Shown here in pieces: positions 447 through 23,829 of a stretch of DNA of 35,466 bases; the stretch's first letter is position 1, and each line of letters starts with the position of its first letter. Under the pieces are notes generated by a model. It ran no database searches. It was not told where the DNA came from and saw only the letters and a list, made by a program, of their open reading frames with translations. The stretch is from the NCBI GenBank assembly GCA_903915035.1, contig CAIWRI010000140.1, positions 1 through 35,466 of the forward strand, in the 5' to 3' direction. Both the position numbers and the translations under genes were made by a program. Source of the stretch: an uncultured Nitrosomonadales bacterium (GTDB lineage: Bacteria > Pseudomonadota > Gammaproteobacteria > Burkholderiales > Gallionellaceae).

Positions 447-455
447 TAATCAGAC

Positions 456-482
456 AAAAAAAGCCCCCAGCATGTGGGGGCT
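456..482 (-). terminator. Rho-independent terminator on the minus strand
   Basis: Stem AGCCCCC/GGGGGCT of 7 bp with a 7-nt loop (469-475). On the minus strand seven consecutive T follow directly; the last A-T pair of the stem shares the first base of the run. On the plus strand the hairpin is followed by CTAAAGATC, without a T-run. The polarity is therefore opposite to both flanking genes, engB and hemB. Confidence 0.7.
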
Positions 483-545
483 AAAGATCTTAACAGGGTT
501 AAGAACACGCTCAGGGAGGAGAAACGCGGAACGATTCATCACCAT
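456..545 (-). ncRNA. Candidate minus-strand small RNA with intrinsic terminator and CCUCC (anti-Shine-Dalgarno) segment
   Basis: Read on the minus strand, this stretch ends in a perfect 7-bp stem AGCCCCC/GGGGGCT (482-476 with 468-462) followed by seven T (462-456), a classical Rho-independent terminator. On the plus strand the same hairpin has no T-run after it. Upstream on the minus strand is a second perfect hairpin, CTTAAC-CCT-GTTAAG (503-489), and before that the pyrimidine-rich segment TCTCCTCCCTGAG (522-510), which contains the complement of a ribosome-binding site. No open frame on either strand uses this region. The 5' end is a guess and I found no convincing promoter, though the DNA at about 550-605 is AT-rich. 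Function is unknown; sRNAs with exposed CCUCC that block translation starts are known in Betaproteobacteria. Confidence 0.5.
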
Positions 546-20324: not shown

Positions 20325-21590
20325 TCAGTGAACAGCCTCCGGGATAGTCTGAACTTCATTCCACGGCGCAACCTTGAACAGCAGCAACATCCCCGGAATG
20401 GCGAATACCGCACACAACAGAAAAAATCCGCTCCAGCCCATGCTCTCCACTAACCAGCCGGTGGCTGCATTGGCAAAGGTGCGCGGCATCGCCATCAGGC
20501 TGGTAAACAGCGCAAACTGTGTGGCGGTATAAGCCGGATGCGTAGTGCGAGCAATGAAGGCGACAAAAGCCACCGTACCCAGCCCCACGCCTAACGCCTC
20601 AAGTCCTATCACCAGCGCTAATTGCATGCGTGCCAGCGCGTTGATCTCGGCATGGTGACCGATGGATGCCAGCCACGCGAAGCCGAAAATCGCCACGATC
20701 TGCACCACACCGAACAGCCACAAAGCGCGGTTGATGCCGATCTTCACCATCCACAGCCCGCCCAGCATTCCACCAATCACCGCAGGCCAAAGTCCCGCAT
20801 TTTTGGCAATCAGTCCGATATCGGTCTTGGAAAAACCCATGTCGAGATAAAACGGGGTGGCAAGCGAGGTGCACAGGCTGTCGCCCAGCTTATAGAATAG
20901 CAAAAAAAACAATATAAACATGGCACTACGCGAGCCTTGCCGGTTGATGAATTCCCGGAATGGCTCGATGACCGCTTCGCGCAAGGTTCGGGGAGCAATC
21001 GCTAAGTGCGGCTCAGCAATGCTCAAGGTCATCGCAATCCCGGGCAGCATAAACAGCGCGGTGATGATGAAAACCGTGCTCCACGGCAAAAAATCCGCCA
21101 GAATCAGCGACAAGGAACCTGGCACCAGACCGGCTACGCGATAGGCATTGACATGCACCGCATTGCCCAGCCCCAGCTCCGGGTCGCTCAACAGTTCACG
21201 ACGATAGGCATCGAGCACAATATCTTGCGTCGCGCCGAGCACTGCCAGCAACGTGGCGCACCAGGCGATGGTAGATAACTGGCTGGCAGGTGAAAATCCG
21301 CCCATGTTAGCGATTACCGCTAGAAGGCCTAGCTGAGTTAGCGCCATCCAGCCGCGACGGCGGCCCAGCATCGGCAACGCATAGCGATCAAGCAACGGTG
21401 ACCAGATAAATTTCCAGGTATAAGGAAATTGAATCAGCGCGAATAAACCTATAGTTTTCAGATCGACATGTTCGCTGCGCAGCCAGGCGGGCAGCAAGTT
21501 GAACAGCAGATACAGCGGCAGACCGGAAGAAAATCCGCTAAACACGCAAATCAGCATATTGCGGGTAAATAATTGCCGGATAACGCTCAT
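20325..21590 (-). CDS. ampG: AmpG-family muropeptide permease (MFS)
   Basis: This 421-residue protein has about 12 to 14 hydrophobic segments. The AmpG signature ATQDIVLDAYRREL lies near residue 107-120, and the N terminus (FSSGLPLYLLFNLLPAWLR) and KFIWSPLLDRY are also typical. AmpG imports N-acetylglucosaminyl-anhydromuropeptides into the cytoplasm for cell-wall recycling. The substrate is inferred from the family. The ATG overlaps the metW stop by four bases, so it belongs to the metX-metW-ampG operon and should fall under the upstream SAM-II riboswitch. Its 3' end is followed within six bases by the 19-bp dyad. Confidence 0.88.
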   Translation of the reverse strand: MSVIRQLFTRNMLICVFSGFSSGLPLYLLFNLLPAWLRSEHVDLKTIGLFALIQFPYTWKFIWSPLLDRYALPMLGRRRGWMALTQLGLLAVIANMGGFSPASQLSTIAWCATLLAVLGATQDIVLDAYRRELLSDPELGLGNAVHVNAYRVAGLVPGSLSLILADFLPWSTVFIITALFMLPGIAMTLSIAEPHLAIAPRTLREAVIEPFREFINRQGSRSAMFILFFLLFYKLGDSLCTSLATPFYLDMGFSKTDIGLIAKNAGLWPAVIGGMLGGLWMVKIGINRALWLFGVVQIVAIFGFAWLASIGHHAEINALARMQLALVIGLEALGVGLGTVAFVAFIARTTHPAYTATQFALFTSLMAMPRTFANAATGWLVESMGWSGFFLLCAVFAIPGMLLLFKVAPWNEVQTIPEAVH

Positions 21591-22192
21591 ATCCCGCGCT
21601 GGAAGCGATAGACCGCTGTGCTGCCGAGCAAATTGGAGAACAGCGAGATTTCATGCCCGCCCGTCATGACGCTACGTGCGGTGATACTGACGCAGTATTT
21701 TTCGCAAAACTGATCAAAGTCGTTCAGGGTACACAGGTGCACATTGGGCGTGTCATACCACTGGTAGGGCAACTCGCGCGACACCGGCATGTGGCCCATG
21801 ATAATGTTCCAGCGATTCTTCCAGTAACCAAAGTTGGGAAAACTGACGATGCCCTCACGGCCTACGCGCAGCATTTCCTGTATCAGCGCCTCGGTATGAC
21901 GGGTAGCCTGCAGCGTCTGTGAGAGAATCACAAAATCAAATGCGCCATCTTCGAAATCAGACAAGCCGGAATCCAGGTCATTCTGGATCACGTTAACACC
22001 GTTGGCGATGCACGACACGATATCCATATCGCTGATTTCCACGCCGTAACCGCGCACTGAGCGTGTTTCCTTGAGATAGCGCAACAGACTGCCATCCCCG
22101 CAACCCAGATCCAGCACCGAGGCACCTTTAGGTATCCAGGCAGCAATAGCGGCAAAATCGGGACGCTCCGCTGCAAGTGAAGCTATGCTCAT
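21587..22192 (-). CDS. metW: Methionine biosynthesis protein MetW (SAM-dependent methyltransferase fold)
   Basis: This 201-residue protein has the SAM-binding motif [16 protein letters not shown] near residue 25 and a methyltransferase fold. The segment [29 protein letters not shown] is typical of MetW. MetW works with MetX: in several Proteobacteria the pair is needed for homoserine acylation, the first committed step of methionine synthesis. It overlaps metX and ampG by four bases (ATGA) on each side, so all three are translationally coupled. Confidence 0.95.
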
Positions 22193-23322
22193 TTTGATAT
22201 CTCCCGGCTGACATTGGCAAGATAGGCGCGCATCACATCGAAGTAATGCGGGTGCTCCATCAGAAAAGAATCATGCCCGTGATTGGAAGTAATTTCCGCA
22301 TAGCTGACCGGGCGTTTATTATGCAGCAGCGGGCGGATAAGCTCGCGTGAACGCTTAGGTGAAAAACGCCAGTCCGTGGTGAATGAGATCACAAGAAAAC
22401 CCGCGCGCGCACGTGCAAAAGCCTTATTCAAATCGCCGTCACAATCTTGTGCCGGATCAAAATAATCCAGCGCCTTGGTCATCAACAGATAGGTATTGGC
22501 ATCAAAGTAGGCAGCAAACTTATCCCCCTGATAACGCAGATAGGATTCGATCTGAAATTCCACCTCATAGCCGTAGTTATAATTTTCGGTCTGCAGATGG
22601 CGGCCGAATTTGTCTGCCATTGCATCGTCTGACAAGTAAGTAATATGGCCCAGCATTCGCGCCAGACGAAGGCCTCGCGTCGGCACTACGCCATGCTGAT
22701 AATAATTCCCGCCATGAAAATCAGGATCAGTCAGAATGGCGTTGCGGGCCACGTCATTGAAAGCGATGTTCTGTGCGGTAAGCCGAGGTGCGCTGGCAAT
22801 CGCCAGAACATGATGCACCCGTTGCGGATAGGCTAACGACCATTGCAAAGCCTGCATCCCGCCCAGGCTACCGCCTATCACCGCTGCAAAGCAGTCAATA
22901 TCCAGCAGGTCAGCTAACCTTGCCTGCGACTCGACCCAGTCTTCCACGGTGATCACCGGGAAGCTCGCGCCATAAGGCTCGCCAGTTTCAGGATTGATCG
23001 AAGAAGGTCCGGTCGAACCGTGACAACCGCCCAGATTATTCAAACCGATGACGAAAAACTTGTCAGTATTGACAGGCTTGCCCGGGCCGACCATGTTATC
23101 CCACCAGCCGATATTTTCCGGTTGCCCGGCATAGACGCCTGCCACATGATGATGACCCGACAGGGCATGGCAAATCAGAATGGCATTAGATTTGTCGACA
23201 TTTAACGTGCCGTATGTTTCATACATCAACTCATAACGAGGCAAAACCGCACCACTGCGAAATACCAGCGGAATATCAAACAACGCGCTCTGCGCTTTAA
23301 CAATACCTACAGAATCACTCAA
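22189..23322 (-). CDS. metX: Homoserine O-acyltransferase (MetX family)
   Basis: The alpha/beta-hydrolase MetX activates homoserine with an acetyl or succinyl group for methionine synthesis. The nucleophile elbow is [12 protein letters not shown]; the catalytic His is in NHGHDSFL near the C terminus, and [16 protein letters not shown] is the oxyanion region. I choose the TTG at 23322 (377 residues, starting with the typical SDSVGIV). GGAG (23331-23328) lies five bases upstream of it, and the protein has normal length. An in-frame TTG at 23358 would put the start inside a terminator hairpin. No in-frame ATG occurs until about 30 residues later. Betaproteobacterial members often use succinyl-CoA; this cannot be read here with certainty. 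Expression should be controlled by the SAM-II riboswitch. Confidence 0.95.
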
Positions 23323-23331
23323 AGCAGCTCC

Positions 23332-23365
23332 AAAAGAAAACCCGTTTAGCTTAGCCAAAACGGGT
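23332..23365 (-). terminator. Intrinsic terminator of the metX leader (attenuator)
   Basis: On the minus strand ACCCGTTT (23365-23358) pairs perfectly with AAACGGGT (23347-23340) around a 10-base loop. TTTCTTTT (23339-23332) follows directly. It sits between the SAM-II aptamer and the metX ribosome-binding site (GGAG 23331-23328), the position expected of a riboswitch-controlled terminator. Confidence 0.75.
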
Positions 23366-23370
23366 GTTCA

Positions 23371-23460
23371 CGCTTTAGCTGGTATATTTTAGTAAACATG
23401 AAAATCCTGAATTTAGATGTTTACCTGTGCCCCGCAAGCTGATGTCAAATCGGCACGGAG
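23371..23460 (-). promoter_or_regulatory. SAM-II riboswitch aptamer upstream of metX
   Basis: Read on the minus strand: P1 is GTGCC (23456-23452) with GGCAC (23431-23427). The loop holds the conserved GATTTGA and GCTTGC (23439-23434). The 3' strand GCTAAAGC (23379-23372) pairs with GCTTGC as in the SAM-II pseudoknot (C-G, G-C, two bases UA left over for ligand, then U-A, U-A, C-G, G-C). The order GATTTG, CTTGC, P1, A-rich linker, GCTAAAG is the SAM-II signature. Unlike compact members, an 8-bp hairpin GTAAACAT/ATGTTTAC (23424-23417 with 23399-23392) is inserted in the linker. SAM binding should lower metX-metW-ampG expression. Confidence 0.85.
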
Positions 23461-23463
23461 CTA

Positions 23464-23492
23464 AGTGTCCGCGTTTTATCCCGCGCTGTCAA
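23464..23492 (-). promoter_or_regulatory. Promoter of metX-metW-ampG
   Basis: On the minus strand a perfect TTGACA (23492-23487) is followed after 17 bases by GACACT (23469-23464), a weak -10 (3 of 6). The predicted start near 23457 falls exactly at the first base of the riboswitch P1 stem, which supports both calls. The -35 lies within the last codons of the hopJ-like gene. Confidence 0.6.
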
Positions 23493-23829
23493 TTTTCAGT
23501 GCCAGCGCACTGCTCTGAAATTTTATTCCGCCCCAGCCGGATAGCATAAAATTGCGGATATTCTGATGATCCGTGCCTGAGCGGTGCTTGAGCACATCGT
23601 CACGGTAATAGCTGCCGAAGCAATGCAGGGTCTGCTGCGATGTCAGTCCTTGCAAGCTTGCAAAGGAGAAAACCTTGCATGAACCGTTGTTCTCACCGGC
23701 TTCGTTTTGCAGCTCCCCGTTGCGAAATGCGCCTGGCGTAAAATCGTAATACGCGTCAACCACCGCAATGGTGTCATTGAAGGCGATGCTGTCGGGCGCG
23801 GTTGCCAGCGTTTTTAGGAATTGTTTCAT
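23476..23829 (-). CDS. HopJ-family protein (type III effector HopJ domain)
   Basis: The 117-residue protein matches the HopJ family along its whole length: SIAFNDTIAVVDAYYDFTP, NGELQNEAGENNGSCKVFSFA, LQGLTSQQTLHCFGSYYRDDVL and GTDHQNIRNFMLSGWGGIKF. The family is named after a Pseudomonas syringae type III effector. Close relatives are widespread in non-pathogenic Proteobacteria, so secretion is not implied and the function is unknown. There is no signal peptide or membrane segment. It has its own TATAAT upstream and no terminator before the metX leader, so some metX transcription may come through it. Confidence 0.88.
   Translation of the reverse strand: MKQFLKTLATAPDSIAFNDTIAVVDAYYDFTPGAFRNGELQNEAGENNGSCKVFSFASLQGLTSQQTLHCFGSYYRDDVLKHRSGTDHQNIRNFMLSGWGGIKFQSSALALKIDSAG

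What the first reader, a model, noticed from the sequence alone, without database searches (positions are those of the whole stretch)
23371..23460. SAM-II riboswitch controlling metX-metW-ampG in a betaproteobacterium
On the minus strand the leader shows P1 (GTGCC/GGCAC), the loop motif GATTTGA, the pseudoknot strands GCTTGC and GCTAAAGC with the two unpaired bases UA between the paired segments, and a promoter starting exactly at P1. SAM-II is best known upstream of metA/metX in Alphaproteobacteria. Here it sits in front of a TTG-started metX gene in a betaproteobacterial locus. The match of sequence order and pairing is strong, but it was made by eye.
Basis: partly seen in the sequence, partly recalled or inferred. 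Interest (0 to 1): 0.8.

Follow-up and report, generated by a model that had tools for sequence, protein, structure and literature searches.

The report
SAM-II riboswitch with extra hairpin
The RNA leader in front of a methionine-synthesis operon of a bacterium akin to Gallionella is very probably a known kind of SAM-sensing switch (SAM-II) with an extra built-in hairpin that public models overlook, and the same switch seems to have been filed elsewhere under two other names.

Summary
In detail: window 23456-23372 (minus strand) carries P1 GTGCC/GGCAC, GATTTGA, GCTTGC and GCTAAAGC ahead of metX-metW-ampG. A model from 58 relatives, window left out, scores it 71.4 bits, E=1.8e-15; next best place 17.5 bits. 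Rfam's SAM-II model gives 20.3 bits (cut-off 36) with the wrong 3' strand, because a covarying hairpin (23425-23391) sits between P1 and loop L3: eight of nine pairs show two-sided changes. A GCTAAAGC-based antiterminator and a terminator follow, so the likely mode is SAM-induced termination. SAM-II with terminators in betaproteobacteria is published (PMC1273637, PMC2258182). Not found in print (ten searches of an open-access library): the hairpin, present at this site in six family-level groups; that Rfam 'sRNA' RF02424 is antisense to such a switch before metZ (the 30 best loci, 30 of 30); and the probable identity of Leyn 2014's 'metXZ element' with SAM-II, whose alignment I could not read. 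SAM binding is untested.

The parts
23464..23492 (-). Likely promoter: -35 TTGACA 23492-23487, 17-nt spacer, weak -10 GACACT 23469-23464; start of transcription inferred at about 23457
   Evidence: sequence; TTGACA 29-35 nt before P1 in 65 of 79 related loci; not listed by the consensus scan
23452..23456 (-). P1 5' strand GTGCC
   Evidence: P1 fully paired in 155 of 156 loci, in three covarying versions
23445..23451 (-). Conserved SAM-II loop motif GATTTGA (L1)
23434..23439 (-). Pseudoknot P2 5' strand GCTTGC
23427..23431 (-). P1 3' strand GGCAC
23391..23425 (-). Inserted hairpin between P1 and L3: outer arms GGTAAACAT 23425-23417 and ATGTTTACT 23399-23391
   Evidence: fold z -3.3; 8 of 9 pairs with two-sided changes across 6 sequences
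23380..23390 (-). L3, A-rich (AAAATATACCA), aligned with the L3 of relatives without the insert
23372..23379 (-). Pseudoknot P2 3' strand GCTAAAGC; also 5' strand of the proposed antiterminator
23353..23362 (-). Proposed antiterminator 3' strand CGTTTTGGCT, ten pairs (G-U included) with AGCTAAAGCG 23380-23371
23332..23365 (-). Intrinsic terminator: CCCGTTTTGGC-TAA-GCTAAACGGG then TTTTCTTTT
   Evidence: -12.1 kcal/mol; similar hairpins with a T run in the relatives printed; not listed by the tool's scan
22189..23322 (-). metX (TTG start, GGAG 23331-23328), homoserine O-acyltransferase
   Evidence: NF047916 MetX_succinyl 667 bits (cut-off 560)
21587..22192 (-). metW, overlaps metX by 4 bases
   Evidence: PF07021, TIGR02081
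20325..21590 (-). AmpG-family MFS transporter, overlaps metW by 4 bases
   Evidence: TIGR00901 490 bits, cut-off 350

Best explanation
This is a SAM-II riboswitch in an enlarged form. P1 and pseudoknot P2 make the usual SAM-II fold; an extra hairpin is embedded between the 3' strand of P1 and loop L3, where it could stack under P1 without touching the ligand core. Without SAM the newly made strand AGCUAAAGCG pairs with CGUUUUGGCU, part of the 5' half of the terminator, and transcription runs into metX-metW-ampG. With SAM, GCUAAAGC is held in P2 with GCUUGC, the terminator forms, and transcription stops. Shown here: the conserved core, P1 covariation, hairpin covariation, terminator, complementarity, nested folding energies, gene context. 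Inferred: SAM as ligand, P2, the stacking, the switching, and that the hairpin tunes folding speed or stability rather than the ligand.
For: R1 71.4 bits, E=1.8e-15 in own genome. Insert-free relatives above Rfam's SAM-II cut-off: L009 and L035 (2 of 5), 3 of 20 class loci. P1 in three covarying versions, 155 of 156 loci fully paired. Insert hairpin: 96.3% of cells paired, 8 of 9 pairs with two-sided changes, covariation 0.896 against 0.278 shuffled, 0 of 500. GCTAAAGC finds 8 of 8 pairs in the terminator region in 43 of 77 leaders, where 0.1-2.6% of single-leader shuffles do as well. In the window the nascent leader is -29.1 kcal/mol with the antiterminator and -18.3 when the P2 strands are blocked; the full leader prefers the terminator, -33.2 against -30.6 with the antiterminator forced. 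Genes metX, metW.
Against: Rfam SAM-II model 20.3 bits, cut-off 36; that model also rings at E<=10 in 14 of 14 control genomes, so such a score proves nothing by itself. P2 does not vary, so it has no covariation support. 18 of 77 leaders have 7 of 8 antiterminator pairs, which 3-12% of shuffles reach, and 16 of 77 have 6 or fewer; the leaders are kin, so the counts are not independent. The fold of the insert is weak in L030 (z -0.42), L043 (-1.38) and L132 (-1.6). The folding does not model the pseudoknot. No binding or expression data.
Confidence: 0.82

Rival explanations
1. Same SAM-II switch, but it works mainly at the level of translation or mRNA stability, and the terminator hairpin is constitutive or incidental.
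For: 16 of 77 leaders have no better than 6 of 8 pairs for the antiterminator, and the 7-of-8 cases (18 of 77) are within reach of chance; in S. meliloti metA a terminator behind a SAM-II aptamer was not predicted to be switched by it (PMC9373788, passages).
Against: The ribosome-binding site GGAG lies 40 nt behind GCTAAAGC and outside the aptamer; 43 of 77 leaders keep all 8 pairs between GCTAAAGC and the terminator region.
Confidence: 0.15
2. A relic: the hairpin insertion has spoiled the aptamer and the leader no longer senses SAM.
For: The window departs from the canonical 38-nt spacing and fails Rfam's cut-off.
Against: The 8 insert loci found through MetX similarity alone keep the core motifs intact, and the hairpin covaries; a dead switch would decay.
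Confidence: 0.04
3. The functional RNA is on the other strand: a small RNA, as Rfam family RF02424 claims for the Burkholderia counterpart.
For: RF02424 hits the plus strand of the window weakly, 19.0 bits, cut-off 70; the founding member was detected by RT-PCR and a Burkholderia review lists it as an expressed transcript (PMC3521395, PMC10987360; passages).
Against: The T-run terminator and the downstream met gene are on the riboswitch strand: GCGGGCTTTTT in 30 of 30 and a metZ-like start in 27 of 30 of the best RF02424 loci; the published RT used oligo(dT) and PCR and does not by itself show the strand.
Confidence: 0.02
4. A SAM-V or SAM/SAH-type pseudoknot, or another ligand.
For: SAM-V and SAM-II share a pseudoknot core (PMC2704228, passages).
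Against: No hit to other SAM families at E<=10 in 23200-23600; the insert-free relatives that hit an Rfam family hit RF00521 only.
Confidence: 0.03

Closest known systems
SAM-II riboswitch (SAM_alpha, RF00521)
   Same: P1, GATTTGA, P2 strands GCTTGC/GCTAAAGC, A-rich L3, methionine genes, terminator behind it
   Different: 34 extra bases forming a covarying hairpin between P1 and L3; below RF00521's cut-off
SAM-II long loops (RF01726; Weinberg 2010, PMC2864571, passages only)
   Same: listed there as an expansion of SAM-II
   Different: reported from Bacteroidetes and marine samples; RF01726 gives no match at the riboswitch in 14 of 14 insert genomes searched, though it matches the insert-free one of G267 weakly (14 bits); the supplement with its details could not be read
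metXZ element of beta-proteobacteria (Leyn 2014, PMC4239095, abstract, outline and passages)
   Same: upstream of metXW or metZ, proposed pseudoknot, terminator and antiterminator, 35 genomes
   Different: published as a new element of unknown ligand, with SAM_alpha reported only in Rhizobiales and Rhodobacterales; its alignment (Figure S2) was not readable here, so the identity is inferred
Bp2_287 'sRNA' (RF02424; Khoo 2012, PMC3521395, passages and one section)
   Same: the reverse complement of its consensus contains P1, GATTTGA, GCTTGC, a small hairpin, GCTAAAGC and a terminator
   Different: filed as a small RNA on the opposite strand; the authors suggested a cis element of methionine metabolism; SAM-II is not named in the passages and section seen, and a search counted no 'SAM-II' in that paper
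preQ1-II riboswitch (recalled, no call)
   Same: H-type pseudoknot with an embedded extra hairpin in the third loop
   Different: other ligand and other core

Membership tests
SAM-II | P1 helix supported by covariation | tested here: met
   three covarying versions, 155 of 156 loci fully paired, two of five pairs vary on both sides (3' strand taken as the best of four offsets)
SAM-II | Conserved GATTTGA loop and GCTTGC / GCTAAAGC strands in order | tested here: met
SAM-II | Pseudoknot P2 formed by GCTTGC and GCTAAAGC | tested here: inconclusive
   strands complementary in the window; conserved in 76 of 80 MetX-chosen loci but without variation, so no covariation
SAM-II | A-rich L3 next to GCTAAAGC | tested here: met
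   AAAATATACCA, aligned with insert-free relatives
SAM-II | Controls methionine genes | tested here: met
   position in front of metX, metW; control itself not tested
SAM-II | Binds SAM selectively | not testable with these tools
   needs a binding assay
SAM-II (Rfam RF00521; a detection threshold, not a defining trait) | Score above the curated cut-off of 36 bits | tested here: not met
   20.3 bits, mis-aligned 3' strand; insert-free relative L009 scores 40.0; 17 of 20 short-spacing class loci fail it too
SAM-II long loops RF01726 | Match to its model | tested here: not met
   no match at the riboswitch
SAM-V | Match to its model | tested here: not met
   no match at E<=10
metXZ element (Leyn 2014) | The six conserved regions of its published alignment | not testable with these tools
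   figure and supplement not readable; context and architecture agree
Bp2_287 sRNA RF02424 | Score above the curated cut-off of 70 bits | tested here: not met
   19.0 bits on the plus strand, antisense to the riboswitch
Bp2_287 sRNA RF02424 | Independent transcript on the strand of the model | not testable with these tools
   in 30 of 30 best loci a SAM-II core lies on the opposite strand

The most novel reading that the evidence does not exclude
SAM-II has a recurrent, unrecognised three-stemmed form: a hairpin repeatedly gained at the P1-L3 junction that stacks under P1 and tunes the switch, as an embedded hairpin is recalled to do in preQ1-II. This form, with its plain relatives, is the main SAM sensor of methionine synthesis in beta- and many gammaproteobacteria, where it is in print as an unassigned 'metXZ' element and, on the wrong strand, as the sRNA family RF02424.
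Probability: 0.5. Interest if true: 0.6.

Novelty: new variant of a known kind. Interest (0 to 1): 0.48.

Why it matters
It shows where the SAM-II pseudoknot tolerates a whole extra helix. It explains why Rfam's SAM-II model misses such copies; the same model also fails on 17 of 20 short-spacing copies sampled from the class. It offers a concrete correction: RF02424 would have to be re-filed as the antisense of a SAM-II riboswitch, and the ligand of the 'metXZ' element is probably SAM. All these points can be tested by simple binding and strand-specific RNA experiments.

Tried and rejected
Rfam at gathering thresholds finds nothing at the site. The sub-threshold RF00521 match uses CUAAAU near 23410 as 3' strand, which I rejected in favour of GCTAAAGC 23379-23372 on the strength of the relatives. 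The idea that SAM-II in a betaproteobacterium is itself new was dropped after passages of PMC1273637 (Bordetella in the legend of its SAM-II figure), PMC2258182 and PMC2704228. Rfam 'SAM-II long loops' was tested as the home of the insert variant and rejected.

The match in G579 (L140) of the phylum search was rejected as chance: no R1 hit, no clear met gene, and the reversed-pattern control also rang once in that search. A control search for insertions in loop L1 over the same 369 genomes gave matches in 5: R1 supports two (L174 32.5, L175 44.2 bits); one (G332) is by eye a normal switch with a spare GATTTGA upstream and was not scanned; two (L171, L172) have no R1 hit. So the P1-L3 junction is the commoner insertion site but not the only one.

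Strand data for the Burkholderia counterpart were looked for in PMC4603805 (passages) without result. The consensus scan found no promoter and did not list the metX terminator.

Papers: PMC2864571, PMC2704228, PMC1273637, PMC2258182, PMC9373788, PMC6337395, PMC10987360, PMC4603805 seen as passages; PMC4239095 as abstract, outline and passages; PMC3521395 as passages and one section; all others as search listings only. 'Not found in print' rests, in a library of open-licence papers without supplements or most subscription journals.

Full report
What is there. The minus strand between the HopJ-domain ORF (ends 23476) and metX carries, in order, TTGACA 23492-23487 (inside the end of that ORF), P1 GTGCC, GATTTGA, GCTTGC, GGCAC, a hairpin, an A-rich stretch, GCTAAAGC, and a hairpin followed by TTTTCTTTT. 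metX, metW and an AmpG-family transporter follow with 4-base overlaps. The best metX start is TTG 23322 behind GGAG; the longer ORF would begin inside the terminator. Two relatives printed (L017, L025) have ATG where the window has that TTG.

Is it more than chance. Of 80 loci chosen by MetX similarity alone, many titled Gallionella or its kin, 76 carry GATTTG and GCTAAA; 68 have them 37-39 nt apart, 8 have 57-74 nt, the window 72; L014, L052, L061 and L074 show no such pair. A covariance model R1 from 58 distinct relatives (10 of them with inserts; window left out; P1 its only helix) gives the window 71.4 bits, E=1.8e-15 in its own genome, next best 17.5. R1's E-values are rough.

Is it SAM-II. 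Five insert-free relatives were scanned: L009 40.0 and L035 36.9 bits pass Rfam's SAM-II cut-off of 36; L020 34.8, L070 34.4 and L023 32.4 fall short. In the same of 8 insert loci have no hit at E<=0.5. The window gets 20.3 bits with the wrong 3' strand; in its genome this is the best RF00521 place, next 15.9, but the model also rings at E<=10 in 14 of 14 control genomes. Of 20 short-spacing class loci (of 30 fetched) 3 pass the cut-off. P1 occurs as GTGCC/GGCAC (87 loci), GCGCC/GGCGC (36), GCGTC/GACGC (32) and once with a mismatch (156 loci, duplicates and the window itself included). P2 does not vary and rests on conservation only.

The inserted hairpin. In six sequences of the genus the nine outer pairs are 96.3% paired; eight pairs change on both sides; covariation 0.896 against a shuffled mean of 0.278 (0 of 500) and at most 0.207 when slid. 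Folding z-scores run from -7.9 to -0.4 over 19 inserts; L030, L043 and L132 are not convincing alone; the first pair begins 0 or 1 base after the P1 3' strand in 19 of 19. Ten of 150 genomes of the family, the window's included and all in its genus, have the long form. On a metX tree of 83 rows the trait needs 4 changes, against 10.5 for shuffled labels; starred branches force 2, so gains and losses both remain possible.

Spread. In a class-wide sample 122 of 369 genomes match the core with a gap of 14-44 and 8 of 369 with a gap of 34-64; the reversed-pattern control is 0 in both. With G041, seen, nine genomes in five families carry hairpin-like inserts, the window's included. The phylum search matches 4 of 299: the window, two genomes of one further family with unlike inserts, and one chance match. 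R1 hits the insert loci scanned from these other families (L129-L135, L138, L139), L139 only weakly at 18.9 bits; G041 was not scanned. Loop L1 can also take insertions, two supported cases.

How it probably works. GCTAAAGC can pair with GCTTGC (aptamer) or with the 5' half of the terminator (GTTTTGGC here). 43 of 77 leaders have 8 of 8 pairs (0.1-2.6% of shuffles do as well), 18 have 7 (3-12%), 16 have 6 or fewer. In the window the nascent RNA favours the antiterminator by about 11 kcal/mol over the state with the P2 strands blocked; once the terminator is complete it wins by 2.6 kcal/mol. So SAM, by holding GCTAAAGC, should favour termination: an OFF switch. That the hairpin at the foot of P1 stacks on this five-pair helix and stabilises it is inference.

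What is known. Intrinsic terminators behind SAM-II and its presence in betaproteobacteria are in print (PMC1273637, PMC2258182, PMC2704228; passages). Leyn 2014 (PMC4239095; abstract, outline, passages) described 'metXZ', a pseudoknot with terminator-antiterminator before metXW or metZ in 35 betaproteobacterial genomes, as new, and reported SAM_alpha only from two alphaproteobacterial orders. By position, architecture and taxa it is very probably the same RNA as here; I could not read its alignment.

RF02424. Rfam's Bp2_287 'sRNA' hits L138, a leader of O-succinylhomoserine sulfhydrylase (metZ) with an insert-type SAM-II, at 107.5 bits on the opposite strand. In 150 genomes of that family 73 match at E<=0.01 and 36 pass the cut-off. 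Of the 30 best, 30 have the SAM-II core on the opposite strand and GCGGGCTTTTT behind it on that strand; 27 have a metZ-like N-terminus within 350 nt. The weaker matches were not checked. In the four of these loci that I scanned no SAM-II family is reported at E<=1. By eye the P1-L3 junction holds a minimal GGG...CCC hairpin in 27 of the 30 and a longer one in 3 (L168-L170). Khoo 2012 (PMC3521395; passages and one section) suggested a cis element of methionine metabolism. The name stands in lists of small RNAs in PMC6337395 and PMC10987360 (passages).

Verdict.

Noticed in passing
window 454-530, minus strand: anti-hemB RNA (RF02837), 57.3 bits, above its cut-off.
   Followed up: no
window 23476-23829, minus strand: ORF with a HopJ domain (PF08888, 160 bits) directly upstream; the likely metX promoter overlaps its end.
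   Followed up: no
L017, L024, L028, L031, L040, L045, L046, L047, L049, L051, L054, L057, L060, L062, upstream of P1: In 14 of 79 metX leaders a further stretch, in most with a hairpin such as CGACTTAACGAG..CTCGTTTAGTCG, lies between the conserved promoter and P1 (by eye). Origin and role unknown.
   Followed up: partly
L118 1495-1548 and 1606-1660: Two SAM-II aptamers in tandem, 44.0 and 31.7 bits with R1; G247 and G360 carry several pattern matches each.
   Followed up: partly
L131, L133, L134, L135: Insert-type SAM-II in front of metN-like ABC transporter genes rather than biosynthesis genes (by eye).
   Followed up: no
L174, L175: SAM-II with extra bases in loop L1 instead of at the P1-L3 junction.
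   Followed up: partly
L141-L170: Rfam RF02424 sRNA family lies antisense to a SAM-II core in 30 of 30 best loci.
   Followed up: yes
window 22189-23322: metX scores above the cut-offs of both a homoserine O-succinyltransferase model (667 bits) and an acetyltransferase model (564 bits) of NCBIfam, higher for the former.
   Followed up: no
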